Source: Actinomycetota bacterium
GTDB taxonomy: Bacteria; Actinomycetota; Humimicrobiia; Hakubellales; JAMDDV01
Reading direction: 5' to 3'
DNA length: 64,000 bases
Assembly: GCA_023488455.1 (NCBI GenBank)
Contig: JAMDDV010000040.1
Coordinates: 1-64,000, forward strand
Part shown: in pieces, positions 14,901 to 46,488 of the stretch
Numbering within the stretch: the stretch's first letter is position 1
Layout: each line of letters begins with the position of its first letter
The notes under the pieces: generated by a model
The model's input: the letters and a program-made list of their open reading frames with translations, nothing else
Databases searched by the model: none
Told to the model about the DNA's origin: nothing
Position numbers and translations under genes: made by a program

Positions 14901-15179
14901 GTGCATTATTTAGCTATGTTTGATACAGAAGAATTTAAAAGTAGACTGGAAAAGATTGGGGAAGAAAAAGTTCGAGAATATTTAGCAAATAACGTTTATA
15001 GACCTGAGGAAAAACAAATTGTTGAAGAATGGCTGTCTTCTAAAAAAGAAAAAAGAATTAATAAAAATAAAGATATAAATATCAATATAGCTAAGAGTGC
15101 AAAAAATGCTGCTTGGATAGCGGCTATTGCTGCTATTATTAGTGCAATCGCTGCAATTACTTCATGGATTTGGAGATAG
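14901..15179 (+). CDS. Small protein with coiled region and C-terminal membrane helix
   Basis: A 92-residue product (from GTG 14901) or 87 (from ATG 14916). The N-terminal 45 residues form a charged helix pair (EEFKSRLEKIGEEKVREYL), then a basic linker (KKEKRINKNKD), then an Ala/Ile-rich membrane helix (WIAAIAAIISAIAAITSW). Eleven bases separate it from the dCTP-deaminase-like gene, so the two are probably co-transcribed. The charged front resembles SLATT-like or sensor subunits only in general character. No family is recognised. Confidence 0.55.
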   Translation: MHYLAMFDTEEFKSRLEKIGEEKVREYLANNVYRPEEKQIVEEWLSSKKEKRINKNKDININIAKSAKNAAWIAAIAAIISAIAAITSWIWR

Positions 15180-15190
15180 GGGGTACATGA

Positions 15191-15721
15191 ATGTTTCTTC
15201 TTAATGATATTATGATCTTACAATATATGAAGGAAGGTTTATTAGAGATCGAAGGTTTCGATCAAAAACTTTTGCATCCTACTTATTATTATTTTCGACT
15301 AGGTAAATGGATTAAGATTTGGAATGGACAGATCAAAGATTATCATTCCGATGAATTAGGAGAACCTGGGAAAGAGGTATTGAGCATACCTCCCCAAGGT
15401 TATGCACTTATACAATCTCTAGAATTTTTTTCGTGTTCAAAAAAGGTTCTTGCAATTTTTGGTCAAATTTCAGCTTTACCAAGAAGAGGATTGAGGTTAA
15501 ATCATTCTCCAAGCATTGATCCAAATTTTAAAGGTTATTTGGAGATGGGGTTAGAGAATCTTCTAGATACCCCAAAGGAAATAAAATATGGTGATTATAT
15601 TGGGAAAATACTATTTTTTGATATTTCCGATACATACCCGCTAGGCCAAATTAAAGGTACTATTAGTGAAGAGGATTATAAACGTCGAGAAACACTAAGA
15701 GGTGCAGAACCTTTGGATTAA
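15191..15721 (+). CDS. dCTP deaminase / dUTPase-fold protein
   Basis: The 176-residue protein shows the trimeric dUTPase/dCTP deaminase fold: an early DIMILQYMKEG helix, the strand with IPPQGYALIQSLEFF, and the signature SIDPNFKGYLEMGLENL, where the Asp-Pro-x-Phe-x-Gly loop and Glu are the nucleotide site. The RxG(L)RxxHS stretch (PRRGLRLNHS) replaces the usual SS-x-R motif. It might act on dCTP or dUTP, or be a catalytically altered member. dCTP deaminases are known phage-defence enzymes, and this copy sits in a defence island behind a small membrane protein. A GGGGGT ribosome site precedes the ATG. Confidence 0.75.
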   Translation: MFLLNDIMILQYMKEGLLEIEGFDQKLLHPTYYYFRLGKWIKIWNGQIKDYHSDELGEPGKEVLSIPPQGYALIQSLEFFSCSKKVLAIFGQISALPRRGLRLNHSPSIDPNFKGYLEMGLENLLDTPKEIKYGDYIGKILFFDISDTYPLGQIKGTISEEDYKRRETLRGAEPLD

Positions 15722-16243: not shown

Positions 16244-17040
16244 TTATTTCATTAGTCCATTGAGGATATTAGCCAACTTTATGAGTGCCTGGGTTAGGTT
16301 CCTACGGCTGAAGCTTATATACTCTTTATTACCGAAGATTGCGGTCTTGTAATTCAGTCCATTTTCAACCAACAGAATAATTGTTTTTTCCCTGCCCAGC
16401 GCAAAAGCCATTTCATCACAAACCCATTTTGAAGGAGACCAACCTTGATCTGTTTTCGTATCTTTAGAACGGCTAAAATATAATCAGAATCGTCAATCAA
16501 CCTCTTCACTTTTTCGGAAATGGAACCTGTGCTTGGCTTTTCCCCAGTAACAATAGAAATATAGAAAGCAGCTAATAATTCTTGGATAGTATTTATCAAT
16601 TTTTCATTCTTTTTTCTAAAGGAGTATGAAATAAAAAATATTGGTGTTTTCCGAAAGAGCTTTCGTAATTCTGTATCAGTACATGCACCCAGTAATCCAA
16701 TCGCTTTAGTTGCTGATTGGATCGCAAGTTCCAAGCACTCATATTTGCGTGGGTTGTCGTGGATTTCACCAGAGAGTGCCTCATCAAAAACCAGTTCATT
16801 ATATCCTACAGCAGGTGTTACAGCTATCATTGGGGCACCCAATCTGCTAAAGATTTTTTCTAATCCGCCCCATTCCTCTACTAACTGTTCTCTTAACTCC
16901 TCTTCTTGCGTATAAAGAATTTCTTTATTTTGAGTACGCCTCCGTCCTTCTCCTAAGATTTCGTAGCAAAGCCTCTGATAATCTTTGAGCTTGTCCCTGA
17001 AATTACGTATCCGATTTTTTAATTCTTCTTTATCTTCCAC
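16244..17040 (-). pseudogene. TIR-like domain protein, frameshifted
   Basis: The first 190 residues start with a helical region, then PIFFISYSFRKKNEKL near residue 130 opens a TIR/SEFIR-type fold, followed by GEKPSTGS and IDDSDYILAVL. There the frame breaks near 16459-16465. In the next frame the fold goes on: GWSPSKWVCDEMAFALGR, EKTIILLVENG, and a final helix, ending at 16244. One added base reunites them into about 265 codons. TIR-like domains often cleave NAD or bind nucleotides in anti-phage systems. As sequenced, the product ends at 16354 and lacks the last half of the domain. It lies just downstream of the GIY-YIG/PD-(D/E)XK operon on the same strand. Confidence 0.6.
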
Positions 17041-17141: not shown

Positions 17142-17732
17142 TCATTTTCTATACAACTCGAGCAATGGTTCAATAATTTTGCTTCTTACTTTATCGCTAT
17201 TGCTAATGGAATATAATGGTACTAGCTTTAACTCACCTTTAAACGAGTAAGACTTATCATCATGGTCAATATTAGGTGATTTGCTTAATACGTTTTTTAA
17301 ATTATATGTAAACTCCCACAGAGCATGCTCAAACTTTTTAATATCCTTATTTTTACTTACTATATCCCTGATGCAACCGAAAATTATCATTGGTTGATTG
17401 CGCTCTTTGTCATATAAAGATATATGAACAACTATTATCTTTAAGTCATCTTGAAATTTTGTTATGGTCTGACCCTTAAAGTATTCAGTCATATTTTCTG
17501 GAGTAAAGAAAACGGTAAAGTTTTTCATCAGCCACATTTCGACATTAATTGGTTCAAGACCAGTTGATGACCTTGTGGAGATAGAATACCCGGCAGGCTT
17601 GAGAATCATAAATCTTTCTTCCTCTTCCTGTAGTAGCCCCTCTATCTCCTTTATCAAATATGATGTTTCGAAATATAGCTTTTGTACAAAATCAAATGCA
17701 TTCTTTGTTTGTTGAGATAATTCATCACTCAT
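17142..17732 (-). CDS. Hypothetical protein, last gene of nuclease operon
   Basis: A product of 196 residues from the ATG at 17732. This start overlaps the stop of the preceding gene by 8 bases (ATGAGTGA) and has AAAGGA upstream, so translation is coupled. The N-terminal 50 residues are helical (FVQKLYFETSYLIKEIEGLLQEEEERF), followed by a mixed alpha/beta region. I recognise no family and see no catalytic motif. Coupling to the PD-(D/E)XK gene suggests a partner or immunity role. Confidence 0.65.
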   Translation of the reverse strand: MSDELSQQTKNAFDFVQKLYFETSYLIKEIEGLLQEEEERFMILKPAGYSISTRSSTGLEPINVEMWLMKNFTVFFTPENMTEYFKGQTITKFQDDLKIIVVHISLYDKERNQPMIIFGCIRDIVSKNKDIKKFEHALWEFTYNLKNVLSKSPNIDHDDKSYSFKGELKLVPLYSISNSDKVRSKIIEPLLELYRK

Positions 17733-18543
17733 TTTGTGTCCTTTCAAAAAATATTTTACTTAGTGGAACAAATTTGTCGCAACTCAAATTATTGAAATAA
17801 ATCCTTGAATAAAAAATGCTATTACCGAACTTCATTATCTTATTTATTTTAGATAGAACATTACTAAAACCAACAAAATCTCCCCTGTAATTAGCGGTAT
17901 AAAATGAAAAGAATATGTTCTCTTTAGCTTCTTTTAAATCATAATCAGCCAACCTATTGAAAGTTTGAAAGCACCTTAAGTTCTTTTTCTCAAATAAGCT
18001 GTAAAGATCTTGTGCAAATAGCAGATCTGGTAGTCTGTTACCGCATTTATCCAATAAAGACATGATAACTTCACAAATTGTCTGCCAGTTAAGCCACTTA
18101 AGAAATTGTCTGTATTTTGGAGGAATATCCTTGAATTTACTCTCTCTATAATAGTAATCAGCGGTAACCGCTATTAATACAAACTCCTTACCAAGATTTG
18201 TAGCCTCCCCTAAACCACCTTTAATCTCGCGCTTAAGTTGATCTTCACTCTCAGACGATCCTTTCCCAAAATTAGAATAATATTTGACCTCAAATAAAAG
18301 ATAATACTTTCCAATAATTAGAATTAAATCAGGCTCAGTTTTATCTCCAAAGCTAGGCCAAAAGATAAACTCGGCATTTTGTAATTCATCATTATTAACA
18401 GAAATGTTCAGTCTTTCTAAAAGCGCTTTTAGGAATATTTTTCTATCAGAATATTTGAAGAATGAAAAAACATTCGAGGTCAGGATATCCTCATAGTTTT
18501 CAACCTTTGAAGATAGCTTGCCTTTTAGTTCAGCTATATACAT
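17725..18543 (-). CDS. PD-(D/E)XK nuclease-like protein
   Basis: The 272-residue protein contains EPDLILIIGKYYLLFEVKYYS at about residues 72-92. The acidic D-x(12)-E-V-K spacing is the PD-(D/E)XK nuclease core, so DNA or RNA cleavage is likely. The N-terminus (FFKYSDRKIFLKALLERL) and C-terminal half are unlike named restriction enzymes. Its start overlaps the end of the upstream GIY-YIG gene by 14 bases, and its end overlaps the next gene, so it is the middle of a tightly coupled operon. There is no methyltransferase alongside, which argues against a classical restriction-modification pair. Confidence 0.7.
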   Translation of the reverse strand: MYIAELKGKLSSKVENYEDILTSNVFSFFKYSDRKIFLKALLERLNISVNNDELQNAEFIFWPSFGDKTEPDLILIIGKYYLLFEVKYYSNFGKGSSESEDQLKREIKGGLGEATNLGKEFVLIAVTADYYYRESKFKDIPPKYRQFLKWLNWQTICEVIMSLLDKCGNRLPDLLFAQDLYSLFEKKNLRCFQTFNRLADYDLKEAKENIFFSFYTANYRGDFVGFSNVLSKINKIMKFGNSIFYSRIYFNNLSCDKFVPLSKIFFERTQNE

Positions 18544-19234
18544 TTTTTGTCTTTTTTATGGATTTGATCAAAAATTCCATCTCTTCATCAGTTATATTAC
18601 TGGCTCTAAGGTGCTGTACTTGCCATAGACCGCTTTCTCTAATTTTGTCTACGGGGGAATATTTACCCAGCCAATTCTCAGAAGGCTTACAATATGTACA
18701 ACTTGCTATTGTCCCAATTAAGCAGCTCTCAAGTCCAGCAGATCCCATTCTATTTTGTTGATTTTCAATGATAATAAATCTAAATGAGAAATTCTCTCTT
18801 AATATTCGTGAGACTTCTGATTCGATTTTCTTTTCCTTGTCAATGTCTCTTAAATGGGCATTTTTTATTCTATCTGTTTTTTTTATGAAATCCATATCCC
18901 AAATTTTCAGATATTCATCTCCAGCCATGTTCAGTAAAACTCTTCCAATATTCTTTCTAAAAATGCTTGTATCATGAGGTGGAGGCACAAGAGAATTAAA
19001 ATTCATTCTTGTTTCATTTAACAAGTAATGTCCTTTAATTCGACTTTTAAAATTTCCATCTTTATGGGTGCCAACTCTGACTATTCTTGGTTTATTGCCA
19101 CCATGCCCCCATATTTCACCATTTTCATAAAAGAAATATATCCCGTTATCGGGAAGTTTATTAATGTCAAACGGATATTTAATTAATGGTAATTGTTCCA
19201 GTTGCTGGTGTATCCACTTACATTTTTCTATCAT
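18530..19234 (-). CDS. GIY-YIG nuclease-like protein (long form)
   Basis: The 234-residue protein shows a GIY-YIG fold: NGIYFFYENG (GIY strand) near residue 29, RIVRVGTHKDG (YIG-like strand) near residue 50, and FKSRIKGHY with the catalytic Arg. Later, GSAGLESCLIGTIA contains the catalytic Glu helix. A cysteine at each of several positions (CLIGTIASCTYC) might bind metal. The gene lies 5 bases from the DUF6884 gene and overlaps the PD-(D/E)XK gene. It is one of two GIY-YIG proteins in the operon. Confidence 0.7.
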   Translation of the reverse strand: MIEKCKWIHQQLEQLPLIKYPFDINKLPDNGIYFFYENGEIWGHGGNKPRIVRVGTHKDGNFKSRIKGHYLLNETRMNFNSLVPPPHDTSIFRKNIGRVLLNMAGDEYLKIWDMDFIKKTDRIKNAHLRDIDKEKKIESEVSRILRENFSFRFIIIENQQNRMGSAGLESCLIGTIASCTYCKPSENWLGKYSPVDKIRESGLWQVQHLRASNITDEEMEFLIKSIKKTKNVYS

Positions 19235-19239
19235 TTTTT

Positions 19240-19632
19240 TCAGTCAATATCTTCTATATGAGTGAATTTGATAATTTTTAGTTTTGGCTCGCTTATTAGT
19301 CTTTTATACAAAGAATGAAAGCGTCCCGGATTATGATAAAACCGAATTTCATCGTAATCTTGAAGCTTCTGATCAAAATCGTTTAATAGATTCTTGTATT
19401 CTTTTTCTGTTACTCTGTTTGGGTCTTTTTCATACCACTCATGTTCTATATAGGGGAACCAAATACCATATAGATCTGAAAATATTGCCCAATTCACTTT
19501 CTTCTCTTTGCATCTATTCATAAAACGCTGAGTTGGTGTTGCAGTGTAAAGATTATCTGGTGTGGTTTTTTGATGATTGAGTTTATAGACTTCATTCTTT
19601 TTATCTGAACAGTGAGTGATATAAATTCTCAA
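19240..19632 (-). CDS. DUF6884-like protein
   Basis: This 130-residue protein begins with IYITHCSDKKN, a strand followed by a Cys-Ser-x-Lys-Lys loop. NLYTATPTQRFMNRC and IFSDLYGIWFP follow. This pattern is typical of the DUF6884 / YaaA-like group, which is often found near DNA-modifying or nucleic-acid-binding proteins. Its biochemical role is not settled. It sits between two GIY-YIG genes on the minus strand, with short spacing on both sides. Confidence 0.6.
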   Translation of the reverse strand: MRIYITHCSDKKNEVYKLNHQKTTPDNLYTATPTQRFMNRCKEKKVNWAIFSDLYGIWFPYIEHEWYEKDPNRVTEKEYKNLLNDFDQKLQDYDEIRFYHNPGRFHSLYKRLISEPKLKIIKFTHIEDID

Positions 19633-19689
19633 TTAAAATCTTCCCTCTCGTTAAGGTACTGTATTAAAGAATCATTTATTATAAATAGT

Positions 19690-20247
19690 CTATTGACTTC
19701 TCAATCTTTTAAGCTTTTCTCTAAATTCAATGTTAATTGGATTATTATTCTTATTTATATTCAGTGGCGGATTAAACATGTCTATCAATTTCTCATAGTA
19801 AACCCACGGATTTTCAACTTCAGCAAAATAAATGATTAAAGACTGCTTCATCCAATTTGTGAGTTCTTTTTCATCTATTTCAGAAAATTTAATCTTGCGA
19901 GTATCGCTTTTTCTGGATATTAGTTTAAAACCTAAAAGTACACCTAAACTTGTTCTTAAAGTGGATCCGCTTGAATCATTGCTTGCAAAATGATCTCTGT
20001 AACATCTTTTTCTCAAGCTATTTCTTTGAGTGTTTTCCCTTCCAGCAATACCGGTATAAAGTACTCTATAGCCTTCAAATTCTTTAAAGGTAACTTCATC
20101 AAAAATTTTTGGCAGTTCTACTTTATTTTTTATGCATATTAAACTTATTCCAGCCGAATCCGGTAAAACGGATTTATCATCTACAGATGGGTCAAATGTG
20201 TTTATTGATAATTTTTTTAGGATTTCGGATAGATTGTAATTTGGCAT
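19690..20247 (-). CDS. GIY-YIG nuclease-like protein, first gene of operon
   Basis: I place the start at the ATG at 20247 (185 residues), because GGGAG lies 7 bases upstream; the longer frame to 20313 lacks a ribosome site. The early SAGISLICI strand and YRVLYTGIAGRE are the GIY and YIG strands, followed by LRKRCYRDHF (catalytic Arg/His helix) and SSGSTLRTSLGVLLG, a stretch typical of a GIY-YIG subfamily found near restriction genes. NPWVYYEKLID includes a possible catalytic Glu. It heads the five-gene minus-strand operon. Confidence 0.7.
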   Translation of the reverse strand: MPNYNLSEILKKLSINTFDPSVDDKSVLPDSAGISLICIKNKVELPKIFDEVTFKEFEGYRVLYTGIAGRENTQRNSLRKRCYRDHFASNDSSGSTLRTSLGVLLGFKLISRKSDTRKIKFSEIDEKELTNWMKQSLIIYFAEVENPWVYYEKLIDMFNPPLNINKNNNPINIEFREKLKRLRSQ

Positions 20248-20539
20248 TCTAACACTCCCCATAAAGGACATTACGTTTATTATTACTTTAGTTATATTGG
20301 TAAAATTATACATCGGAAAATGGGATTAAAATTTTATTTGGTTAACTATCAGATTTAAGACATAAAGGGAATTTTGAAAATTATAAGATATAGAATTTGA
20401 TTAGAGACGGTGGAAATATTTCTGACTTTTTATTATGATGAAACAATCTTCTTGATAACGGTTAATCCTTAACAAGGTATATCATAAAATTTGAATAAAT
20501 ATAACTTTTATGAGGGATTACAATTTTTTTTCTTTACAT

Positions 20540-23333: not shown

Positions 23334-25835
23334 TTATTCTTCTAACTGTGCTTCAAGTTTTGACTTAAAATTTTTATAAGTTCTTTCTTTTAGGGCTTTA
23401 TAAAACAGGTCATAACTCTCAGGAGAAAGGAATTTGAAATAATACTTTTGGTCTTTCTGTAAATTATTAACCCTTGCAAAATGTTCCTTTGCATATCGTA
23501 ATTTGGCTATGTTCTCATCAGAAATATCATTATCTGCTTTTATTTCAATAACAATAATCTCATCACCAATCTTTATAAAGAAGTCTGGATTAAAACCCCC
23601 TTGTTTTGGATGCTCACCCTTTCGCCAAGAATATTCAATGCTATAGAAACCAATATCAGGAGATTTTACCCAGGCATTAATAGCTTTCGCTATTTCTTCG
23701 GAAATCAAACCGCGAATAAATTTTCGTTCTGGTTTATAAGATGCTAATACAATGTTTAACGGTGTTTTAAAATTGTATTCATTCTCAACTTTTATCATAG
23801 CTGATTTTGGAAGGCTCTCATCATCGTCCAGCTCTCTTAATAATTTAATATCTCCATCTTCGCTTACGCTCATAGAGTAATCATCCCAAAAGATTGTGCT
23901 ATCTCTGCGTAGTAATCCCACACCCAAGCTGCTTTTATTAATCTTTGTTGTATTCTTTTTATCAAGACCTGCCACTTCTATCTTAAATCTTAGGCTTTTT
24001 GAGCTTTTTCGATATACAACTCCAAAGGCTCGTAGTGTAGTCTGAAGGTTGGTCTCACTTATTACATCATCCTTTTCATCAATTCTTTTTAATGATTCGA
24101 TGATGATTTCTTTAATTCTTTTTCTATCAAACTCCACTGAATAATTTGTACCCAAATCCATATCAATTGCTTTTAATCTGTTGTAAACATCATTGGCAGC
24201 CTCATTAACAGAATACATATTAAACTCGATAAGAGTGTGTTTTACATCCTGCTCTCCTGATATTACCCTTGCATAGGTAGTGGGTTTTTCTAACACTGCA
24301 GCCTGGCTTGAATAAGTTATATATCCTTTTTGAAGGAGGTCATAGGGTTCTTTTTGAGGATATTCTGTTTCTTCCTCTACTCTTCTATAATTAATATTAT
24401 ATAAATCGAAATTATAGTCCTCTTTCTTTTTAATAGGGTATGAATGGATTTGTTTTTCAATCTCCATTACCTCATCGACCAAATGCTTTATGCTGCTTGA
24501 CCATTTATCATGATTAAAAACAGTTACTACAGGTTGGCTACCTCTATAGACATCAGGGATTCTTAAACCTCTTCCTAATACCTGAGCTATCAAAAGTTTT
24601 GAATTAAATGCTCTTTCCTCATGCGGGACAACCTGAAAGACATTTTTCACATCCCATCCCTCGGATAGCATGCTAACTGATGTGATCCATTCAATTGGAT
24701 TATACTCAGCATCAACTCGTCGAAGGATCGGTATATTGTATTTATGTTCATTTGCAGAGGTAACGATTAAGACCTTATTTGATGCATGCTCTCTACTAAT
24801 TCCTTCTTTTTCTGCAAGGAATAAAATCAATTTCTCTGTAAGGCGCTTACAAGCAGCGATATTTTTCGTAACTATAATCGTTATGGGTTTAACTTTTCTG
24901 TATTTAATAGTTTTATTCTCTATGTGGTTATCATAAATTTTCTGGAATTTCTCATCCTCGTCACCGGATGAATCCTCAGCTACATATCGAATTAATTTGA
25001 TGAACTTTGCCTCAATTGAATCTCTAAGTGAAAACCGATGGATCACATCACTGAAATAATCATTTCCTATGTAGCATGTTCCTGAAAGATTAACTATGTA
25101 CTTAAATCCATATTTTGGATCCAGTAAAAATTCCTTCCATTTTTTTAGAGCTGTATCGGATGGACTCATTAAATGGTGGGCTTCATCATTTAATACAAGA
25201 GTTCGCTCACCCTTACCAACAAGACTGTCTTCAATAGCAGATTTAGTATTTGTATAAGTAGCATGTATGTTCTCAATACAGACATCACCTTTTTGAATTG
25301 TATTTGAAGCGTTAATTATTCTTGGGTTTAATATTTTAGAATCTGGCGGCAGAAGATCTTTTAGTGTTTTATTGGCGGAAAGACTTCTAAACTTCTCTGT
25401 TAATCCAGCTTCTATGGTGTTTGAGGGACATAAAACAAGTATTTGTTCTACCGCTCCTTCTGCTAACATAATGCGAGCTATTCCATACATAACATAACTC
25501 TTACCAGTTGCTGTTGCATGATCAATTGAACAAGAAAGCTTATCTGGCAGTTGTAGATTGCTAACTAAATCTTCGACTGAAGAGTATTTCTCTTGTAACT
25601 TCTGATTATTATGGTAATTTTCCTTTGAAAGTTCTATGATGCTTTTATATTCTCCACCCAAGAAATAACGAAGGGCTTCTCTAATAGCTTGTTTTTGATA
25701 TTCTCTATCCTCACACAAAACATCCAGGAATTCTTCATATTTATTAGGATTAAAAATCTTAGAATCATAATTAGAGGAAACATTTAATACTAGATCTCTG
25801 TTTTGAAATGTCTGAAGCTCAAGCATTAACATCAC
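23334..25835 (-). CDS. Type III restriction enzyme, Res (helicase-nuclease) subunit
   Basis: The 833-residue protein has superfamily 2 helicase motifs: ATATGKSYV (Walker A, about residue 106), LVLNDEAHHL (DEAH-like, about 213) and, later, SMLSEGWDVKNV and AQVLGRGLRIP (motifs V and VI). At the C-terminus GFNPDFFIKIGDEIIVIEIKAD (about 745-768) is a PD-(D/E)XK nuclease site. This is the Res subunit of a type III restriction system, which needs Mod for recognition. Start is at or just after 25835 (GTG, ATG 25832 or ATG 25826, the last with AGGTG well placed). It directly abuts the glutamine amidotransferase gene. It is more A/T-rich than mod. Confidence 0.9.
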   Translation of the reverse strand: MMLMLELQTFQNRDLVLNVSSNYDSKIFNPNKYEEFLDVLCEDREYQKQAIREALRYFLGGEYKSIIELSKENYHNNQKLQEKYSSVEDLVSNLQLPDKLSCSIDHATATGKSYVMYGIARIMLAEGAVEQILVLCPSNTIEAGLTEKFRSLSANKTLKDLLPPDSKILNPRIINASNTIQKGDVCIENIHATYTNTKSAIEDSLVGKGERTLVLNDEAHHLMSPSDTALKKWKEFLLDPKYGFKYIVNLSGTCYIGNDYFSDVIHRFSLRDSIEAKFIKLIRYVAEDSSGDEDEKFQKIYDNHIENKTIKYRKVKPITIIVTKNIAACKRLTEKLILFLAEKEGISREHASNKVLIVTSANEHKYNIPILRRVDAEYNPIEWITSVSMLSEGWDVKNVFQVVPHEERAFNSKLLIAQVLGRGLRIPDVYRGSQPVVTVFNHDKWSSSIKHLVDEVMEIEKQIHSYPIKKKEDYNFDLYNINYRRVEEETEYPQKEPYDLLQKGYITYSSQAAVLEKPTTYARVISGEQDVKHTLIEFNMYSVNEAANDVYNRLKAIDMDLGTNYSVEFDRKRIKEIIIESLKRIDEKDDVISETNLQTTLRAFGVVYRKSSKSLRFKIEVAGLDKKNTTKINKSSLGVGLLRRDSTIFWDDYSMSVSEDGDIKLLRELDDDESLPKSAMIKVENEYNFKTPLNIVLASYKPERKFIRGLISEEIAKAINAWVKSPDIGFYSIEYSWRKGEHPKQGGFNPDFFIKIGDEIIVIEIKADNDISDENIAKLRYAKEHFARVNNLQKDQKYYFKFLSPESYDLFYKALKERTYKNFKSKLEAQLEE

Positions 25836-26641: not shown

Positions 26642-28663
26642 TTATAAGTTTTTGAAATCAGCAAGAGTTTTGACTTCTCGTTTTTCATTACCGAAGATAT
26701 CAATGTAAATGATCATGATTTGCTCCTTGACTTTATACTCGACAAAGCGCATCTGGTAGCCGTTCTTCTTCAACTCCTCGGCATAGAAGACCTCATCTAA
26801 GTCAAAGACTTCTCCATCAAAGTCGAAGTCCAGCATGACCATGGAAAGGGTCTCAAGGTTGGTAAACACAAGAGGCTTGCGGGAGATGATCTTACTCTCA
26901 AACCTCTCAATCTTGATGACACATTCTTTTGTTCCTTCCCCTAATCCCAATTGCCCCTTCTTGTCATCAATGAAGTATTTGCACTCTACCGTAGGCACCT
27001 GAATAAAATCGAAACCTACTGCATCCACCGTGTCATTGACATCCATCTCGCTGACAGGCTGTTTGATTTTAGTGAAACCACGGTTGTGAATTTCTTCAAT
27101 AATTGAGTAAGGAATTCGGAGAATAAAATATTTTGTATTGCCCTTTTCAAAGTAGTCCTCAAGGAATTGCACCGATGCTGCCGGGGCGATGATGAAGAAA
27201 CGCCTTCCGATCCTGTCTTCCAAGTACCTATGGAGATCATCGATGAAATCCCTGCCCATCATGGCGTTTTCATGTTTTTGGTAGTTAAAGACAAGCACGT
27301 GATCGGCTCCCAGATAACCGTCCAGTTCAATCTTTGAAATCTCATGCTTCTCATCCCGGCACTGAAAGAGCTTGAGAGCAAAGTCCCGATACTGCTCCCA
27401 AGGGAGTTCCTTGATCATCTTGTAATCATAAAGTCCAGCATTATAAAGGGTGAAAGGTTTACAAGGCTTACTGTATTTCTTCTTTGGGTTTTCTAAATCC
27501 TTGCTCTCAGCAATGTTCAAAAGGCGCTTCTGCATTGTGTAGATGGCTAACTTCCCACAGTCCACACCGATCCACCGCCTGCCAAATTTCTCAGCCACGG
27601 CAAGTGTGGTGCCTGATCCAGCAAAGCAATCTAAGACAAGATCTCCGGGGTTGGAGGAGGCTTCAACGATGATGCGGAGTAGGTCTTCAGGTTTTTCGGT
27701 TGGGTAATTGGTTGCTTTACTCTGCTTGATAAGTTCATTATTCCATACGTCACCAACGGTAACGTATTTTGCGCTTGGGCTCGTTAATCTCTGAATAACC
27801 TCTTCTTTAGTTTCTTTAGGGTTATCACTTACATAACTCTTCAAAGCCACACCAGCTTCAATCTCCCAAGGAGCTGGAGTTCGGCCCATTCTCCCTCGTT
27901 TATAAAACCAACCCTTCGTGTCCTTCTCGATACTTTGTAACGTTGATTCTTTGTAAGGGCCAAGAGGCGGATTCCACAAACGTTGATCACGCCTCTTTGC
28001 ATAGATAAGGATATTTTGGTATTCAGTGGGCATGGCAGAAGAGGGGCTGTGGATGCGTGATGCACCGCCCTCACGCCCCTTGTGCCACACAATTTCATTT
28101 ACAAAGTTTGTTTCCCCTAAAATCTCATCCATCATGAGCTTGATGTAATGAACTCGCCTATTATCCAAGTGCACAAAAAAATTCCCATCCTCACTCAACA
28201 ACTCCTGCAAGAAAACCAGCCTCTTCCTCAGAAACTCCAGAAACCCTGCCCCCGCTATCTTGTCCTGATACGCTTTTTGATCCTGGCTTCCCCTGAACTC
28301 CTGCCTTGTTGCAAACGGCGGATCAATATAGACCAACCTCACCCCTGGCGTTCCATCAGCGTTCTTGAGTTTCCCCTCCTGCTTTATCTGCAAGAGGGTT
28401 TTTAACACCTGAAGATTATCGCCGAAGATGAGCATATTCACCCAGCCGTTGTCGTTCTTGCCATTTCGGAAAGTCTTGACCTTCTGCAAAGGTACAGCCA
28501 TAGTATCTGCAAGTATGTCCTCTTCTCTCTCTTTATCTGCATAAATAAGCTCATACTCCTTTTTGGCATCAAAAAGAATTGATTTATATTCTTCGGGTAG
28601 CGGCTTACTTCCTTTTAGAAAGTAGAGTATTTTTTCAATTTCCTGGTCTGAAAGCTGTCTCAT
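26642..28663 (-). CDS. Type III restriction system DNA methyltransferase (Mod)
   Basis: The 673-residue protein is a beta-class N6-adenine methyltransferase. The catalytic motif IV VYIDPPF (about residue 110) comes before the SAM-binding motif I CFAGSGTT (about 346), the order seen in type III Mod. The region between contains the target recognition domain (about 190-330). The C-terminal 250 residues are a helicase-binding part. It methylates one strand of an asymmetric site and gives specificity to Res. It is richer in G+C than res, which suggests that the two halves have different histories. It heads the mod-GATase-res operon. Confidence 0.9.
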   Translation of the reverse strand: MRQLSDQEIEKILYFLKGSKPLPEEYKSILFDAKKEYELIYADKEREEDILADTMAVPLQKVKTFRNGKNDNGWVNMLIFGDNLQVLKTLLQIKQEGKLKNADGTPGVRLVYIDPPFATRQEFRGSQDQKAYQDKIAGAGFLEFLRKRLVFLQELLSEDGNFFVHLDNRRVHYIKLMMDEILGETNFVNEIVWHKGREGGASRIHSPSSAMPTEYQNILIYAKRRDQRLWNPPLGPYKESTLQSIEKDTKGWFYKRGRMGRTPAPWEIEAGVALKSYVSDNPKETKEEVIQRLTSPSAKYVTVGDVWNNELIKQSKATNYPTEKPEDLLRIIVEASSNPGDLVLDCFAGSGTTLAVAEKFGRRWIGVDCGKLAIYTMQKRLLNIAESKDLENPKKKYSKPCKPFTLYNAGLYDYKMIKELPWEQYRDFALKLFQCRDEKHEISKIELDGYLGADHVLVFNYQKHENAMMGRDFIDDLHRYLEDRIGRRFFIIAPAASVQFLEDYFEKGNTKYFILRIPYSIIEEIHNRGFTKIKQPVSEMDVNDTVDAVGFDFIQVPTVECKYFIDDKKGQLGLGEGTKECVIKIERFESKIISRKPLVFTNLETLSMVMLDFDFDGEVFDLDEVFYAEELKKNGYQMRFVEYKVKEQIMIIYIDIFGNEKREVKTLADFKNL

Positions 28664-29179: not shown

Positions 29180-30573
29180 TTATACTAAACATACGTTAGG
29201 TCTAATCATAAATCGAAAGTAATAGCCAAAAAATAAGTATTGAAGTCGATTTTCCAATTTTTGCATCGCGCTTCCTATTATTTCCCTGTTTAATTTCTTA
29301 ATTAACCTTTTTAGGTTTAGTATTGTAGCTGTTAGAAGTAATAGAATTTCAACAATATCTAACCTTCTAAGCTTTGCTCTTGAAAGTCCATGGTGTGCTT
29401 TTGCATCGCCAAATAGTCCTTCTATTACTGTTTTTCTTAAAATGTAGAGCCTCCTACCCCTAGATGAGCTGCACCAAAACCTCGCTTTCTCGAAATAGTC
29501 ATTATCAAATCGAGTTATCATCCTTGGGCCTGTTTTCTCTGGCCCTATGCATTTACCTCTAATTAAGCAGATCTTCCTTAACTGCTTTGTAATAGATTTG
29601 ATTTGTGGAGTGGTTTTTGGATTTTCTTTTAAGTATCTTGCCAGCAGGACACAGAAAATAGTCATGTTTCACATTGTAGTTAAATAACTCTTTTGAAAAA
29701 TATCCTGGCCTGTTGTTAGTGGATGCTGGCTCAATGACCGTCTTAATACCTTTTGCCTGTAGATAACCAAGGCATCCCTGGTTGCCATATTTCATGTCTG
29801 CTGCTATCCATGCTGGAGTCCCAAGCAGTTTTTCATGTTGCTCAACTAAATCTGATGCTTTTGCACTATAACTTAAAGCGCTTGGACTTACGCAAACTGT
29901 AGTGATTACTCCGCCTGCATCTGCAGCAATGTGCACTTTGTAGGATAGCATGCATCCTACGCGTGGGCAATATTGCAGTTTTGCGTCAGGATCGGTTGTT
30001 GAGCGTTTCTTTAAATATGAAACCTCTCTGTCTCTCCTCCTTTTACCGATCTTATGCTTTCAAATTTTCTTACCATCAAAATGTGAACCAACTTGAGAGG
30101 AGAGGCTACCTTTAGGTTTTCTTCCTCTTGGACTATCTGGTATCTCGGATTCATCCAATTTTCTCCAGTACTCCTCTGGGGAAATATTAACCTCAACAAT
30201 AAGAATTTATGGATGCTTCTGCTCTGAGGATGGTGCTATCGATTAAGATTTCCTTAGTTGATACAAGTCCAGCCTGCACGCAGCTTTTAAGCACCTCTTC
30301 AAATATCTTAATAAATAACTTTTTAGAAAACCTCTTTCTAGCCTTGGTGAAGATGCTATGATCTGGAATCTTTTCATCTAGGTCATAGCCAACATACCAC
30401 CTGTATGCCAGATTTAGTGAAATATCTTCGACTAGCTTTCGCTCTGATCTGATGTCGTAAAAATATCCGATGATCATCATCTTCACCAAAACAGACGGAT
30501 CAATTGATGGTTTTCCGGTGTGAGAATAATACTTTTTAGCTCTATCTTGGTATGCACCCCTGTAACCGTACAA
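29180..30573 (-). pseudogene. IS1182-family transposase, C-terminal 85%, frameshifted
   Basis: Reading down the minus strand: GKPSIDPSVLVKMM, LIDSTIL (first catalytic Asp), then frame changes near 30200, an internal stop near 30058, GTPAWIAADMKYG (second Asp), another frame change near 29600, then VIEGLFGDAKAHHGLSRA (catalytic Glu). All three DDE residues survive but the frame is broken at three or more places. The N-terminal piece is displaced to 31796-31924 by the IS3 insertion. Confidence 0.8.
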
Positions 30574-30583
30574 AAAGTTAAGA

Positions 30584-31438
30584 CTAATTGATAGTTACCA
30601 GATCTCTCTCGAACTCTGCCGGTGGCAGATATCCAAGAGATGAATGAAGCCTTTTCGTATTGTACACATCTTCAATGAAATGACCAATACGAAGCAGTGC
30701 TTCAGATACGTCATCATACTGCGATAGATACACCTCCTCTCGCTTTAAAGTTGCAATAAAGCTCTCCACCTGTGCGTTTTCATATGGATTCCCGGCTGCT
30801 GCCATTGATATAAGTATGCCATGCTTTTCTAAGAGATCGGTGTAACCTTTGCAGGCATATTGAACACCCCTGTTAGAATGATGGATTAGCCCAGGTGCAA
30901 TATCCCGGCGGACCAGTGCCATGCGAAGTGCTGAAAGCGTTAGTTCGTGATCCAGATACTCCTTTAGCGACCAGCCGACCACCTTACGCGAGTAAGCGTC
31001 AAGTATTGCTGCCATGTATGCGAACTCATAGCGAAGCCGGATGTATGTGATATCAGCTACCCAGAGCTGATTGATATGAGAGGGAATGAGCTCCTTAGCC
31101 AAGTTTGGATACATGAAGAAGCAGTGACTTGAATTGGTGGTGCTAAATCTGCTGCGCCTCTTCTTTATGGTTAGATTAGCTTGCCTCATTATGCGAAGTA
31201 TCCTCTTGTGATTTACCACATACCCTCTTCTTTTCGTCTCTACTGTTACCCTGCGATAGCCATAACCAGCGAACTCCAGCACTATCTCCTTTATCTCTTT
31301 TAATATGGTAACATCACCAGAATTTACATTCCGCATATCCCTTGATAAGCACCAGGAATAATATGCACTCCTGGATACGCTACAAAGCTCGCACATCCTA
31401 TTTATTGGAAGTTGATCCCTGTACTCATCAATTAGCAT
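30584..31438 (-). CDS. IS3-family transposase OrfB
   Basis: 284 residues with the HTH_21 region at the N-terminus (INRMCELCSVSRSAYYSW) and an rve integrase core: WVADITYIRL (first Asp), LIHHSNRGVQYA (second catalytic position: the usual HSDxGxQY reads HSNRGVQY, so the Asp is replaced by Asn), and NAQVESFIATLKREEVY (Glu). Expression would come from a -1 frameshift at AAAAAAC (31477-31483) that joins it to OrfA. The D-to-N change probably makes this copy inactive. Confidence 0.85.
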   Translation of the reverse strand: MLIDEYRDQLPINRMCELCSVSRSAYYSWCLSRDMRNVNSGDVTILKEIKEIVLEFAGYGYRRVTVETKRRGYVVNHKRILRIMRQANLTIKKRRSRFSTTNSSHCFFMYPNLAKELIPSHINQLWVADITYIRLRYEFAYMAAILDAYSRKVVGWSLKEYLDHELTLSALRMALVRRDIAPGLIHHSNRGVQYACKGYTDLLEKHGILISMAAAGNPYENAQVESFIATLKREEVYLSQYDDVSEALLRIGHFIEDVYNTKRLHSSLGYLPPAEFERDLVTIN

Positions 31439-36016: not shown

Positions 36017-39000
36017 TTGGTAATGAAATGCGTCGAGTTAATGGAGTTGGACCGTACATCTGTTCACACATTTGACGACGTTTTGGACACTGTGAGAGAT
36101 TGTAGAGTACCTGACCAGTGTCGTGATGTATCCCTAGCGATGGCAAGGGTGCTCCTAATTGATGATCACTGGTACTGGACATTTAAGCTAACTGACAAAA
36201 TGCTAGAATGGCTTCAGAATCATTGGCTCATGATTAGATCGGCTAGGTTGGGTGCAATTAAGGGACGTTCTATAGGGAAAGTTGCTAACACTGTGAAAGC
36301 ACTACTACATGACGTTCAGAGTCAATGTAGAACAAGGGCAAGGGAGACGATCGGCCATCTGGAGGAACGGCGCTTCCAACAGTTGGATGAATCGCTTGGT
36401 CAAGCTAGCAAGTATCTAGGTAATATCTTTGCATTTTTAACTCGCCCTGAGATAAGGTTAGCTAAGCAACTATTGAGCCTATGGGATGAAATACGACAAA
36501 GAATGGGCAGTGAGATAGATAAAGCTCGGGTGGTATCCACTCCAGACGATGCTAGAGTAATCTTGAACGAGTTTAAGGGAAATCTCTCCCAACTGTTGGA
36601 GTTTGGTGAATTTGCTTTACTGGACATGTGTATCCCGATTCAAGCTCAGTTTCTTAGTCACATTAAGGGTGAAATGGAACGATGGGGTATATCAGCACCA
36701 GCTGTAGAGATATCTGCTGAGAGAATCGTTTATCCCTTTCACGGTGATACAGAACAAATTCTTTTGTCAATTCAAAACAACGGCGCTGTGTCTATTGATA
36801 GCGTTGTAGTATTAGCTGTGGCCAACACTGGTATCAGCCTGTCGCCCGAATGTTTTGAAGTACGTTATCTTGGTCCCAGCGATAAGGTGACGCAGGCGGT
36901 TGAAGTAAGTATTCCACCGGAATGCCTGCGGCTACAGATAAATTGGTTTGCTGAAGTTGTTGACGGGTTTGGTGTTGAGAATAGAGGTGAAGGAAACATG
37001 CAACTAGAAGTAGACCGAGGAACCCCTTGGCATGAGATATCAAATTGGCCAAATCCATATCCCACTGACCCTATTGAGAGTCCAGACCGGCTATACGGTA
37101 GACAAGACACGCTTCGAAACCTTATGAGGGTGGTAAAGTCGGGAGAAAGTCGTTATCTCACAGGGCAGCGTAGGGTAGGCAAAACATCTGTTGCCCGTGT
37201 ATTACTGGAGAGTTTAAACAAGCAGGACTTTATCCCAGTTTACGCACCCTGGGGTGAAATAGGAGGCAAGATTTTCGAAGTAGTTTGCTGGCAGCTTTGC
37301 AACCGACTACGTGAGGAGGCTGTAAGAACTCAACCGGACCTTGAAGCAATTAATCTGCCAACAGCAGAAGAGTTTGAAAGAGGCTTCAATCAGGCGACCG
37401 TAGGATTTATACGCCGTATTCGTGCCACCTCAGGTCGAAACATTGTAATCGTTCTGGATGATTTCGACGATGTACCTGAATGGGTTTATTCTGAAGAAAC
37501 TGGTGACCTCTTTTTCTCTATGTTGAAGACTTTGACAGGGAGTCGTGGTATATCCCTGATATTTGTAGGAGGCCAGCGACTTAGGTCAATAATGCAGAGC
37601 CCTGTGGCTGGAAAGTTAAATCAAGTGACACCAGTTGACCTTGGATATCTTCCTCGCGAGGCAATGCCTCAACTGGTCAGAGAACCAACAAGAGGCATGT
37701 TGCTGTTTTCAGAGGACTCGATCGACCGCATCATTTATTTGTCTGCTTGCAATCCTTTCTATGCAAACCGCATTTGCAACCGGCTCTGGGACTTTATGAT
37801 TGAAAGGAAGTGGAAGTACGTCATCGCTGAGGATGTGGAGCGAATAGCGAACGAGACAGTATCCCACGATGACTCACCTCTCTTCTCCCACTTCTGGATG
37901 GACGGTATCTGGGGGCAAGGAGAAATCCAAGAAGCATTTGTGAATATTAACCGTGCAATCCTGTACGCCCTTGGCCGACTGGGTACACTTGAACCCAATT
38001 CTCTGTACTTTCACTTCAATGACATCAAGCGAGAGTGCCGCTGCCTGAATGAACAGCAGTTACAGAAATGGTTGGCAGACCTTGTAGCACGAGAAGTAGT
38101 GGAAATGCACCAAGAACTTCCATCGCAATATGCCATCCGCACTCCATACTTTCGGTTGTGGCTCGAAAAAAGAGGGCAATCTGAGCTTTACTCCAAGTTA
38201 GACACGAGCACCATCTTATTACTGCAAAAACCTGAAAAGGAGGTAGTCACTGACGAGGAATTAGAAGACCTAGTCGGGCAAGGTATCAAGTATAGATCTG
38301 GTGTGGTTGGAGTCTACGAAGTCCGTAAGTTTCTGAAGCAATTTGGAAGTGCGAACAACCAACGACTAGCATACAAACTTGTTGAAAAGCTTGTCAGAGA
38401 GGGTTTTTTCAATCGGGAGGATGTCCAGCTTGCCGCCACTGCAGCGGTTAAGGCTCTTTCGCAATACGCCACGGCCACCATAACGGGGTTTGTGAAAAGT
38501 CTAACCGATTCAGGTGTCTGGAAGAATATCTTCGTGGTAGTTCCAAGTGGTTCTTCCGTCACATCGTTTCATGCATTGGCAGACTTCATCCGGCAGGAGG
38601 AGAACCTAGCTAAGAACCAGAGCGGTACTTCTAGGGATCTCATAGGCTTCATACGCCAGCAGAGAACCCATGTCGCCGTGTTACTATTCGACGATGTAAT
38701 TGGAACCGGTGTCACAGCGCTTGCCGCTATCCAAGAAGTGCTGGACGCACTTGATACTGAGAATTTGTTTGGGAATGTTGCATGTATTATGTTCTATGCT
38801 GTGGTCGGATTCCGAGATGTTGTCGAAGAATTGAATCTGCGACTTGAGGGTAGAGCCATAGTGAAGGCATACCGACGGCTTGCTGAAGTGAACAAAGCGT
38901 TTAACCCTGACGCAGGCATATTTGACACAGACGAGGAAAGAGAGCGAGCCCAGAAATTGATCGAGAGCATCGGAGCAAAGCTCGAACCAAGATGTCCACT

Positions 39001-39127
39001 TGGGTATGGAGGGCTCCAAGCACTGATATCGTTCTACCGAAACACACCAAACATTACGCTGCCTATCTTTTACAAGGCTAGCCGCAAAAAAGATTTCCCT
39101 TGGTGGCCTCTTTTCCGGCGAATGTAA
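36017..39127 (+). CDS. STAND NTPase fused to a PRTase-CE-type effector domain
   Basis: The 1036-residue protein has, in order: a helical N-terminal part (to about 240); a beta-sandwich segment (about 240-330); a STAND/AAA NTPase with Walker A GQRRVGKTSV (about 381) and Walker B IVIVLDDFDD (about 475); helical and winged-helix regions; and a C-terminal phosphoribosyltransferase-like domain. The latter has a PRPP-loop-like LLFDDVIGTGVTAL (about 887) and the closing NTPNITLPIFY and WWPLFRR, which are the hallmarks of the PRTase-CE family of conflict effectors. A sensor-ATPase-effector layout fits anti-phage STAND systems. Base composition is clearly GC-richer than its neighbours. The first 76 residues appear to lie upstream in another frame, so the TTG or ATG at 36017-36023 may not be the real start. 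Confidence 0.8.
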   Translation: MVMKCVELMELDRTSVHTFDDVLDTVRDCRVPDQCRDVSLAMARVLLIDDHWYWTFKLTDKMLEWLQNHWLMIRSARLGAIKGRSIGKVANTVKALLHDVQSQCRTRARETIGHLEERRFQQLDESLGQASKYLGNIFAFLTRPEIRLAKQLLSLWDEIRQRMGSEIDKARVVSTPDDARVILNEFKGNLSQLLEFGEFALLDMCIPIQAQFLSHIKGEMERWGISAPAVEISAERIVYPFHGDTEQILLSIQNNGAVSIDSVVVLAVANTGISLSPECFEVRYLGPSDKVTQAVEVSIPPECLRLQINWFAEVVDGFGVENRGEGNMQLEVDRGTPWHEISNWPNPYPTDPIESPDRLYGRQDTLRNLMRVVKSGESRYLTGQRRVGKTSVARVLLESLNKQDFIPVYAPWGEIGGKIFEVVCWQLCNRLREEAVRTQPDLEAINLPTAEEFERGFNQATVGFIRRIRATSGRNIVIVLDDFDDVPEWVYSEETGDLFFSMLKTLTGSRGISLIFVGGQRLRSIMQSPVAGKLNQVTPVDLGYLPREAMPQLVREPTRGMLLFSEDSIDRIIYLSACNPFYANRICNRLWDFMIERKWKYVIAEDVERIANETVSHDDSPLFSHFWMDGIWGQGEIQEAFVNINRAILYALGRLGTLEPNSLYFHFNDIKRECRCLNEQQLQKWLADLVAREVVEMHQELPSQYAIRTPYFRLWLEKRGQSELYSKLDTSTILLLQKPEKEVVTDEELEDLVGQGIKYRSGVVGVYEVRKFLKQFGSANNQRLAYKLVEKLVREGFFNREDVQLAATAAVKALSQYATATITGFVKSLTDSGVWKNIFVVVPSGSSVTSFHALADFIRQEENLAKNQSGTSRDLIGFIRQQRTHVAVLLFDDVIGTGVTALAAIQEVLDALDTENLFGNVACIMFYAVVGFRDVVEELNLRLEGRAIVKAYRRLAEVNKAFNPDAGIFDTDEERERAQKLIESIGAKLEPRCPLGYGGLQALISFYRNTPNITLPIFYKASRKKDFPWWPLFRRM

Positions 39128-45600: not shown

Positions 45601-46488
45601 AGGATCACATTCATCAACTACTAAGATGACAGTGAACAGATTATCTGTCATTAAAATTTTGTTCATCAATTCACTATCCCTAAATTTGGTTGCAGAGTTA
45701 CAATAAATTACAAGCGGATATAAATCTTTATCAAGGGTAGCTTCTAATACAAGCCTAGTTTTACCAATTCCTGGCTCTCCACATATTCGGATATGTAATG
45801 CATCTTTGTTCTTGCGTAATTCACTTCTTATTGTAGCAATGATTTCATCTAATGCCGCACTAGCCTTAAATGAGCTTTTCATGTCATCTTGCATTAACCA
45901 ACTTTGATGCGATTGAAAATTTGGCTGACTGAATCCTTTTAATTTTAAAGATAATGAGGGATATATTTTTGAAAAACCAATTAATTGTGTTAACCCCCAA
46001 ATTTCAATTTTTACATTCCTATAACCACAAAGTTTAAAGTATTCATTTAGGTTGTTTTTTGTCTTTATATACTGCCTATCATTAATTTCTTTTCCAAAAC
46101 ATACTAAAACATATGTCCCATTATTATCTAAACAATTTCTTATGCTAATTCCTAGATGTTCTTTTAAGGGAACAGTATTTCTAAAAAGCAGTCTCTTTAT
46201 ATCTGATTTTTGCCAGGGTTTAAAATTAGAACCAGATTTTATTTGATAACCAGTGTAACCTTCGAATATTAATCCACTTTTCGATGATAATTCATTGCGC
46301 TCAATATGAACATCTATACCACCGTCTGGTACATTTACCCAGCTTGATATTATAATTTTGCCTAATGATATGCCTTCACTTCTTGCCTCTGCCCATAATA
46401 ATTCTTTAAAAAAATCTACAGATTCCTGTGGGTTCAATCGAAGTAGATCTTCGTTTTCAACAGTGAATATATTTGGCAAATTATTCAT
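42694..46488 (-). CDS. Large PD-(D/E)XK-STAND protein (Avs-like architecture)
   Basis: 1264 residues. The N-terminal 130 residues hold a restriction-endonuclease-like fold, with PDGGIDVHI (about 55-62) and GYQIKSGS (about 82-88) matching the D...QxK core. A P-loop NTPase follows: Walker A GEPGIGKTRL (about 236) and Walker B TVILVVDECDP (about 288), then a winged-helix region and some 700 residues of helical repeats. A nuclease effector, STAND switch and helical-repeat sensor is the layout of antiviral STAND (Avs) proteins, which recognise phage proteins. I cannot assign it to a named Avs type. There is no clear ribosome site. It stands alone. Confidence 0.75.
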   Translation of the reverse strand: MNNLPNIFTVENEDLLRLNPQESVDFFKELLWAEARSEGISLGKIIISSWVNVPDGGIDVHIERNELSSKSGLIFEGYTGYQIKSGSNFKPWQKSDIKRLLFRNTVPLKEHLGISIRNCLDNNGTYVLVCFGKEINDRQYIKTKNNLNEYFKLCGYRNVKIEIWGLTQLIGFSKIYPSLSLKLKGFSQPNFQSHQSWLMQDDMKSSFKASAALDEIIATIRSELRKNKDALHIRICGEPGIGKTRLVLEATLDKDLYPLVIYCNSATKFRDSELMNKILMTDNLFTVILVVDECDPDSRSYIWNPLKSRGRRIKLVSIDNDYDPTSGNILYIEMPSLEPEQICSIIQDYGVPRDQVERFVELCGGSPRVAHVIGWNLKNNPEDILKPLDTVNIWDRYIEGYDNPNDIEVKQRKLVLRYISLFKKFGYSDSFLHEAKAISNLITQADPQITWAKFQEIVNKLRKRKILQGETTLYITPKALHIWLWKEWWEDYGRNFDFQKISESIPQSLLEWFFEMFEYAKQSQVATKTVDNLLGANGPFKKHNYLRTELGANFFLALSKAKPESAMDFLENTVGKWAKEELLNFTTGRRDVVWALQKIAVWEHLFVRAANLLLALGEAENEPYGNNASGIFKDLFQLITTTEASPIVRFPVLKEAIYSNSKERRILALDACDAALKTGNFIRMIGAEYQGIQIAPKIWIPKTYNELCEDYHHRVWRLLYERLDDLPDDERDKDIEILFHHASGLAQISNLSNMVIDTLINISQKPYGNKREILSHIIKTIHYDGKKLPENIKSRLEQLRDELTGTDFSSLMKRYVGMQLWEDEYDEKGKKIDAVKAQIERLAGEVIASPELLESELCWLVTEEAQNGYAFGYELGKKDDGFSLLPRLLDAQRNANIKSSEYFLGGYLRAVFEKDKKKWEDILNNIVFDERLAKLVPKLVWRSGISDKAALHILNLLKQGVIKPNEFGIFRYGSVVTKLSEPIFKKWIEFLISLIDIDSISIALDLYYFYYLFNKPERKLPLQLTLKLLLHPSLFKKRESGTRGQMDDYHWTKIAMKFTELFPDESFKIAYKSLEHFGEDGTIVEGFFSQTQKVINEITKLYPEKIWEAITKYLGPPIDSRAFYIKEWLHGGEHTPSGEEGILPVFPSNIIWQWVKENEEKRAWYLTSIVPNTLFREEGKICWARDVLIRYGDRKDVRNELMANFSTEGWSGPGSLHYQKKKEDLLKFKENEDDENVKHWIDEYVKSIDEDIKREKIEEERRGF

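What the first reader, a model, noticed from the sequence alone, without database searches (positions are those of the whole stretch)
17142..20247. Five-gene operon: two GIY-YIG proteins, DUF6884, a PD-(D/E)XK protein and an unknown
Seen: tight minus-strand coupling (overlaps of 14 and 8 bases), two different GIY-YIG-like proteins, a DUF6884-type protein, a PD-(D/E)XK nuclease-like protein and an unrecognised partner. Known: GIY-YIG and PD-(D/E)XK are nuclease folds, and DUF6884-like proteins occur near nucleic-acid-modifying genes. Inferred: a three-nuclease unit without a methyltransferase, in a defence island and next to a TIR-like gene, may be an undescribed anti-mobile-element system.
Basis: partly seen in the sequence, partly recalled or inferred. 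Interest (0 to 1): 0.85.

Follow-up and report, generated by a model that had tools for sequence, protein, structure and literature searches.

The report
DUF6884 and GIY-YIG nuclease gene pair
The five neighbouring genes look like three separable units in a defence-rich stretch of genome, and the core unit is a widespread two-gene pair (a likely DNA-base-reading protein plus a GIY-YIG DNA-cutting enzyme) whose function has not been tested here.

Summary
In detail: five intact minus-strand genes lie at 17142-20247, with 14- and 8-base overlaps. The "one five-gene system" reading mostly does not. DUF6884 + GIY-YIG B is a conserved two-gene unit: of 83 loci, DUF6884 is adjacent upstream in 57, fused in 10, elsewhere in the locus in 6 and not found in 10; it is present in 8 of 9 later loci (2 of the 9 are close relatives of earlier ones). 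Two fusions have the reverse order with a YaaA domain. The family spans many bacterial and archaeal groups. PADLOC lists the sister clade as candidate PDC-M57; this window's DUF6884 is missed by that model. PD-(D/E)XK + unknown is a second pair, PDC-M15A-like. GIY-YIG A was not found with either unit elsewhere. The pairs seem joined only in a narrow lineage (junction signature in 3 of 120 homologues). Best mechanism, inferred: the YaaA-superfamily protein reads a modified or damaged DNA base and GIY-YIG B cuts, like a type IV-like restriction enzyme. Function, substrate and defence activity are untested.

The parts
19690..20247 (-). GIY-YIG A (185 aa; 207 aa if it starts at 20313): GIY-YIG nuclease-like protein, Pfam GIY_YIG_2; probably an independent neighbour, 57 bp upstream of the core pair
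   Evidence: Pfam PF20815 2.1e-33; no match in 44 genomes holding one of the other modules (weak negative); none of 5 GIY_YIG_2 loci (from 199 genomes) has DUF6884, PD-(D/E)XK or the unknown within its 3.2-3.4 kb
19240..19632 (-). DUF6884/YaaA-superfamily protein (130 aa, TTG start): first gene of the core pair; putative base or lesion reader
   Evidence: Weak PF21818 (0.0015); C8 and K12 in 74 of 74 aligned, S52 in 77 of 77; its homologues stand upstream of, or fused to, GIY-YIG B
18530..19234 (-). GIY-YIG B (234 aa): second gene of the core pair; putative endonuclease
   Evidence: PADLOC PDC-M57B 1.1e-59; Y33, R53, G55, R65, H69, E169 universal where aligned; profile link to GIY_YIG_2; precomputed PF26468 on the 120 listed homologues
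17725..18543 (-). PD-(D/E)XK nuclease-like protein (272 aa): first gene of the second pair
   Evidence: PADLOC PDC-M15A 2.7e-11; E18, D72, E85, K87, Q102 in 27 of 27
17142..17732 (-). Unknown partner (196 aa from ATG; TTG at 17747 possible): second gene of the second pair; predicted helix-sheet-helix protein, weakly like YbjN / type III secretion chaperones
18530..18543 (-). 14-base overlap joining the two pairs
   Evidence: the C-terminal signature that it forces (NVYS) is seen in P0001 (this window's own protein), P0002 and P0003 only, of 120 listed homologues

Best explanation
The locus is three modules strung together in a defence island. The core, DUF6884 + GIY-YIG B, is one two-component enzyme. 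The YaaA-superfamily (DUF6884) subunit binds DNA, samples or flips a base and engages an abnormal one (a phage hypermodification or a lesion). It may also process that base chemically through its invariant Cys and Lys. The GIY-YIG subunit then nicks or cuts the DNA, so it works like a modification-dependent (type IV-like) restriction enzyme and needs no partner methyltransferase. The PD-(D/E)XK + unknown pair is a second nuclease pair that has become translationally coupled to it in this lineage, and GIY-YIG A is a further orphan. Shown by computation: the genes, the pairing and fusions, the conserved catalytic-type residues, the wide distribution and defence genes around part of the loci. Inferred: physical complex, base sensing, cutting, and defence rather than repair.
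For: Pairing: DUF6884 adjacent upstream 57, fused 10, elsewhere in the locus 6, none found 10, of 83 loci. Later loci not used for the profile: 8 of 9, with both fusion orders; in two, the partner domain is YaaA above Pfam's cut-off. Conserved residues. High-confidence model of a natural fusion (pLDDT 94.3, pTM 0.76). DUF6884 biology from papers (passages only): PMC11701544 reports a YaaA-like fold, a member (YfjM) among interactors of abasic and RNA-base lesions, and a predicted flipped base. PMC11888242 gives DpdC as an example of DUF6884, and PMC12839542 says that DpdC hydrolyses dPreQ0 to dADG; PADLOC DpdC models weakly match sister-clade DUF6884s (best 8.6e-6). Defence setting: type III RM-like, AbiE, PDC-M24 and PD-Lambda-4_A-like genes in the window. 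Over 145 neighbours of the pair, 275 PADLOC models ring at 1e-10, against 7 over 145 control proteins. Further fusions of GIY-YIG B with HEPN or HEPN-TPR stretches (L066; L151).
Against: No experiment; substrate unknown. No GIY-YIG structure appears among the listed structural matches, where the first domain fills the list, so the nuclease fold rests on motifs and profile links. Pfam GIY-YIG (PF01541) reaches only 0.013 at best, in 13 of 53 members, and the model most members touch is DUF123 (37 of 53, best 0.00032). The high sequence conservation (57-71% identity to the window in 25 of the 26 homologues aligned, the other 85%, from both domains of life) is unusual for arms-race proteins and would also suit a repair enzyme. 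Only a minority of neighbours is shown to be defence-like (most frequent methyltransferase models hit 4 of 145). Distances of the two proteins correlate overall (r 0.76, best of 999 permutations 0.22), but that is mainly the split into two clades; within clades r is 0.375 (best permutation 0.374) and 0.47 (best permutation 0.58).
Confidence: 0.48

Rival explanations
1. The pair is a DNA-repair enzyme: DUF6884 recognises a lesion (abasic site, ribonucleotide, oxidised base) and GIY-YIG B incises beside it, as UvrC does; it sits in islands because it is mobile.
For: A DUF6884 member was reported among interactors of abasic and RNA-base lesions and YaaA is an oxidative-stress protein (passages); high conservation and spread over both domains of life; few neighbour families recur between loci.
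Against: Sporadic presence: 9 of 199 genomes of one phylum and 11 of 196 of another; phylum labels partly scattered on the tree (45 changes; least possible 29; shuffled mean 54.9, none of 200 shuffles as low); RM genes among neighbours and hardly any such genes in controls.
Confidence: 0.27
2. All five genes are one multi-nuclease anti-mobile-element system.
For: Same strand, two overlapping junctions; the GIY-YIG B / PD-(D/E)XK junction signature is kept in two further relatives at 85% and 71% identity.
Against: The modules were not seen to travel together: no other module in the 84 GIY-YIG B loci; 0 of 24 and 1 of 8 genomes for co-presence of GIY-YIG B and PD-(D/E)XK; 0 of 44 for GIY-YIG A.
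Confidence: 0.1
3. The two pairs form one four-gene system in this narrow lineage only, with the PD-(D/E)XK pair recruited as an extra effector.
For: 14-base overlap, and the NVYS terminus in 3 of 120 homologues, one of them the window's own protein.
Against: Each pair has its own wide set of homologues; DNA around P0002 and P0003 was not read.
Confidence: 0.15
4. The pair acts on RNA (for example tRNA) as a toxin-like abortive-infection nuclease.
For: One GIY-YIG B is fused to a Swt1-like HEPN domain (L066) and one to a HEPN-TPR stretch (L151).
Against: GIY-YIG enzymes are mostly DNA nucleases (recalled) and DUF6884/DpdC/YaaA are linked to DNA; only these two HEPN fusions were seen among the fused or longer proteins scanned.
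Confidence: 0.08

Closest known systems
PADLOC candidate PDC-M57 (M57A + M57B)
   Same: Same gene order (DUF6884 then GIY-YIG), same strand, close spacing; window GIY-YIG B matches PDC-M57B at 1.1e-59; sister-clade DUF6884s match PDC-M57A (8.9e-63 for L062, 1.5e-58 for L050).
   Different: Window DUF6884 has no match to PDC-M57A at E up to 1; the window falls in a separate 23-row clade (support 100/100). No paper naming PDC-M57 or PDC-M15 was found in the library searched.
Dpd system protein DpdC (DUF6884/DUF328) and YaaA/YfjM
   Same: Same superfamily; weak PADLOC DpdC matches to sister-clade DUF6884s; a YaaA domain itself fused to GIY-YIG B in L153 and L154.
   Different: No DpdA or DpdB match among the rows shown for the 16 window proteins scanned (for two of them only the best 25 rows are shown); the partner is a nuclease.
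PADLOC candidate PDC-M15A
   Same: PD-(D/E)XK gene matches at 2.7e-11; the four distant homologues scanned match too.
   Different: The partner (unknown gene) and the partners scanned beside the distant homologues match no PDC-M15 model.
Type IV (modification-dependent) restriction and base-excision restriction / Brig1
   Same: Proposed logic: sense or excise an abnormal base, then break the DNA (PMC10273834 and PMC11078745, passages).
   Different: Different protein families as far as seen; the Brig1 paper's text has no mention of YaaA, DUF or GIY-YIG (term counts).

Membership tests
PADLOC PDC-M57 two-gene candidate | GIY-YIG protein matching PDC-M57B | tested here: met
   1.1e-59
PADLOC PDC-M57 two-gene candidate | partner matching PDC-M57A | tested here: not met
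   No match at E up to 1; clade profiles related by hhalign E 3.5e-4 but probability only 37%. Not filed as a member; called a sister variant.
PADLOC PDC-M57 two-gene candidate | DUF6884-type gene directly upstream of the GIY-YIG gene | tested here: met
   5-base gap
DUF6884 (PF21818) | score over Pfam's curated cut-off | tested here: not met
   19.1 bits against 30
DUF6884 (PF21818) | CxxxK and LSAxxG motifs (as given in PMC11701544) | tested here: inconclusive
   C8/K12 present; window has FSDLYG: S52 and G56 kept, L and A replaced
GIY-YIG nucleases (GIY-YIG B) | GIY and YIG-like motifs, catalytic Arg and Glu (roles recalled) | tested here: met
   Y33, R53/G55, R65, H69, E169 conserved; the second motif reads VRVG, not YIG
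GIY-YIG nucleases (GIY-YIG B) | Pfam GIY-YIG model match | tested here: inconclusive
   PF01541 in 13 of 53 members, best 0.013; GIY_YIG_2 in 6 of 53, best 0.002; DUF123 in 37 of 53, best 0.00032; hhalign to the GIY_YIG_2 alignment 81.5%, E 1.1e-5
GIY-YIG nucleases (GIY-YIG B) | GIY-YIG fold in a structural comparison | tested here: inconclusive
   Model confident but the match list covers residues 3-141 only
PD-(D/E)XK superfamily | D...ExK with upstream Glu (motif recalled) | tested here: met
   27 of 27; fold not modelled
Type IV restriction | cuts modified DNA only | not testable with these tools
   needs biochemistry
Restriction-modification | cognate methyltransferase in the unit | tested here: not met
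   none among the five genes; a methyltransferase lies at 26642-28663 near a type III-like restriction gene

The most novel reading that the evidence does not exclude
A two-part 'base reader + GIY-YIG cutter', found across bacteria and archaea, in which the YaaA/DpdC superfamily supplies modified-base recognition (or base chemistry through an invariant Cys/Lys pair) for immunity against phages with hypermodified, for example 7-deazaguanine-type, DNA; the window carries a clade whose first subunit the present PADLOC model misses, coupled to a second nuclease pair.
Probability: 0.28. Interest if true: 0.78.

Novelty: new variant of a known kind. Interest (0 to 1): 0.52.

Why it matters
It replaces a broad five-gene guess with a testable two-protein enzyme. 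If right, a superfamily known from oxidative stress (YaaA), lesion binding (YfjM) and DNA 7-deazaguanine modification (DpdC) also supplies the sensor of a widespread nuclease. That would explain how it can work without a methyltransferase and why its sequence varies so little: it would read a chemical feature, not a sequence or a protein. It would also widen the PDC-M57 definition to a clade whose first subunit the present model misses.
Full report
What is there. The minus strand of 17142-20247 holds five intact genes: GIY-YIG A, a DUF6884-type gene with a TTG start, GIY-YIG B, a PD-(D/E)XK gene and an unknown. GC of the five genes is 0.31-0.33 against 0.37 for the window. The window is a defence island by model matches: type III-like restriction (23334-25835) and methyltransferase (26642-28663) genes, a PD-Lambda-4_A-like gene (42694-46488), AbiEi/AbiEii (49582-51250) and PDC-M24A/B (53025-54274).

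Names. GIY-YIG A is Pfam GIY_YIG_2 (2.1e-33). DUF6884 is sub-threshold (19.1 bits, cut-off 30). GIY-YIG B matches PADLOC PDC-M57B at 1.1e-59 and the PD-(D/E)XK matches PDC-M15A at 2.7e-11; the other three of the five proteins match no PADLOC model at E up to 1. No NCBIfam model comes near its cut-off.

The core pair. Searching with an alignment of 27 GIY-YIG B proteins gave 80 loci from species genomes (the best 80 of 210 that encode a relative) and 4 from viral contigs. A profile found GIY-YIG B as a usable ORF in 83 of these 84 (L074 missed). A DUF6884 profile, iterated on the same ORFs, placed DUF6884 directly upstream in 57, fused in 10, elsewhere in the locus in 6 and nowhere in 10 (in L049 and L068 of the 10 the gene lies at the contig start). 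The iteration on the same set is circular to a degree, so I tested loci fetched later. Of 9 later loci with strong GIY-YIG B matches (E < 1e-40, leaving out L127 and L149, which repeat L078 and L048), 8 have the partner: L128, L129, L130 fused; L131 just downstream, overlapping; L150, L151 upstream; L153, L154 fused in reverse order; L152 has none. Two of the nine, L150 and L151, are close relatives of earlier loci. Weaker matches: fused in L132/L136 (one place) and upstream in L133/L138 (one place); the remaining weak loci show no DUF6884. In L153 and L154 the partner domain is YaaA above Pfam's cut-off (53.7 and 40.3 bits, cut-off 29.6); in L128 and L130 DUF6884 is well above its cut-off; in L129 and L131 it is below it. 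Fusion in both orders, and with either relative of the same superfamily, is strong evidence of physical partnership.

Conservation. Over the window and 83 loci, GIY-YIG B keeps Y33 (83/83), R53, G55, R65, H69 (84/84) and E169 (83/83), plus a signature SIFR (S90-R93, 84/84). DUF6884 keeps C8 and K12 (74/74), S52 (77/77) and Y67 (76/77) over 77 rows. GIY-YIG A and B belong to one wider family: hhalign of their alignments (5 and 53 sequences) gives 81.5%, E 1.1e-5, aligning the GIY, YIG-like, H and SxxR regions. Against Pfam, 53 GIY-YIG B proteins give only weak matches: DUF123 in 37 (best 0.00032), GIY-YIG in 13 (best 0.013), GIY_YIG_2 in 6 (best 0.002), and also unrelated-looking DUF3490 in 14 (best 0.00041). 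The GIY-YIG B of the window is in a 23-row clade (support 100/100) with 15 named phylum-level groups of both domains and 4 rows without one. Over all rows the phylum labels need 45 changes, where 29 is the least possible and 54.9 the shuffled mean; no shuffle of 200 was as low, so labels are partly clustered. This suits a gene that moves between phyla now and then, though bins and paralogues can add changes. Frequency is low: 9 of 199 and 11 of 196 genomes of two phyla at E up to 1e-3, of which 5 and 6 below 1e-40.

Relation to PDC-M57. DUF6884s of the other clade match PDC-M57A strongly (8.9e-63 for L062; 1.4e-58 for the L042 fusion), and its GIY-YIG matches PDC-M57B. The window's DUF6884 and that of L003 do not match PDC-M57A, and hhalign between the two clades' DUF6884 gives E 3.5e-4 with only 37% probability. 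So I treat the window pair as a sister variant of a database candidate. A search for PDC-M57, PDC-M15 and the subunit names in the paper library found no paper; DUF6884 occurs in two papers there. The library lacks most subscription journals.

Linkage between the pairs. Only the window's GIY-YIG B (P0001) and its 85% and 71% relatives (P0002, P0003), of 120 listed, end in NVYS, the terminus that the 14-base overlap with the PD-(D/E)XK start imposes. So the coupling probably exists in a narrow lineage. Elsewhere the pairs were found apart: no PD-(D/E)XK match in 24 genomes with GIY-YIG B; no match of the unknown in 12 more; GIY-YIG B in 1 of 8 genomes with PD-(D/E)XK, distant on the contig. Searches held no genome in which the query was known to match, so each empty answer alone is weak.

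Defence or repair. For 21 genomes I took up to 7 nearest neighbours (145 proteins, 100-900 aa, the pair excluded) and, from arbitrary places in 19 of those genomes, up to 8 proteins each (145 in all). At E 1e-10, 275 PADLOC models ring in the first set (the 25 shown are methyltransferases, type I specificity subunits and mad3) and 7 in the second (mad3, mad2, mad8, two ZorB, DpdA, a nicking endonuclease). The tool does not give the number of proteins hit, many models are redundant, and the most frequent methyltransferase models hit only 4 of 145, so the enrichment is clear in direction but concerns a minority of neighbours. Literature (passages only): DUF6884 shares a fold with YaaA, and a member is a lesion interactor predicted to flip a base (PMC11701544); DpdC carries DUF6884 (PMC11888242) and hydrolyses dPreQ0 (PMC12839542).

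Verdict. A real, well-conserved DUF6884/YaaA + GIY-YIG gene pair, whose sister clade is listed as an untitled defence candidate, here in a variant clade and coupled to a second nuclease pair. The mechanism offered, abnormal-base sensing followed by cutting, is inference with the tests named.

Noticed in passing
window 16354-17040 (minus) and on to about 16200: TIR-like gene (motif FISYSF, recalled) appears frame-shifted: the first frame ends at 16354 while TIR-like sequence reads on in another frame. Pseudogene or sequencing error; not mended. No Pfam match for the ORF.
   Followed up: partly
window 29180-31438: Several adjacent transposase-looking ORFs, some overlapping in different frames, inside the island (named from the sequence by recall, not scanned).
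   Followed up: no
window 42694-46488: 1264-aa protein matching PADLOC PD-Lambda-4_A along nearly its whole length at 1.2e-34.
   Followed up: no
window 36017-39127: 1036-aa protein with a C-terminal stretch matching PADLOC PRTase_III-A models (2e-21) and, by eye, an ATPase-like middle (not scanned on its own).
   Followed up: no
L066:2324-3841 and L151:88-2133: GIY-YIG B fused to a Swt1-like HEPN domain (6.4e-19) and to a HEPN-TPR stretch (HEPN 5.8e-5).
   Followed up: partly
L029:5918-8833: A UvrD helicase - PD-(D/E)XK protein gene overlaps the end of GIY-YIG B, another nuclease gene coupled to this pair.
   Followed up: no
window 14901-15179: Small plus-strand ORF with a sub-threshold match to the BrxL N-terminal domain (0.0021), next to a dCTP-deaminase-like gene (15191-15721).
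   Followed up: no
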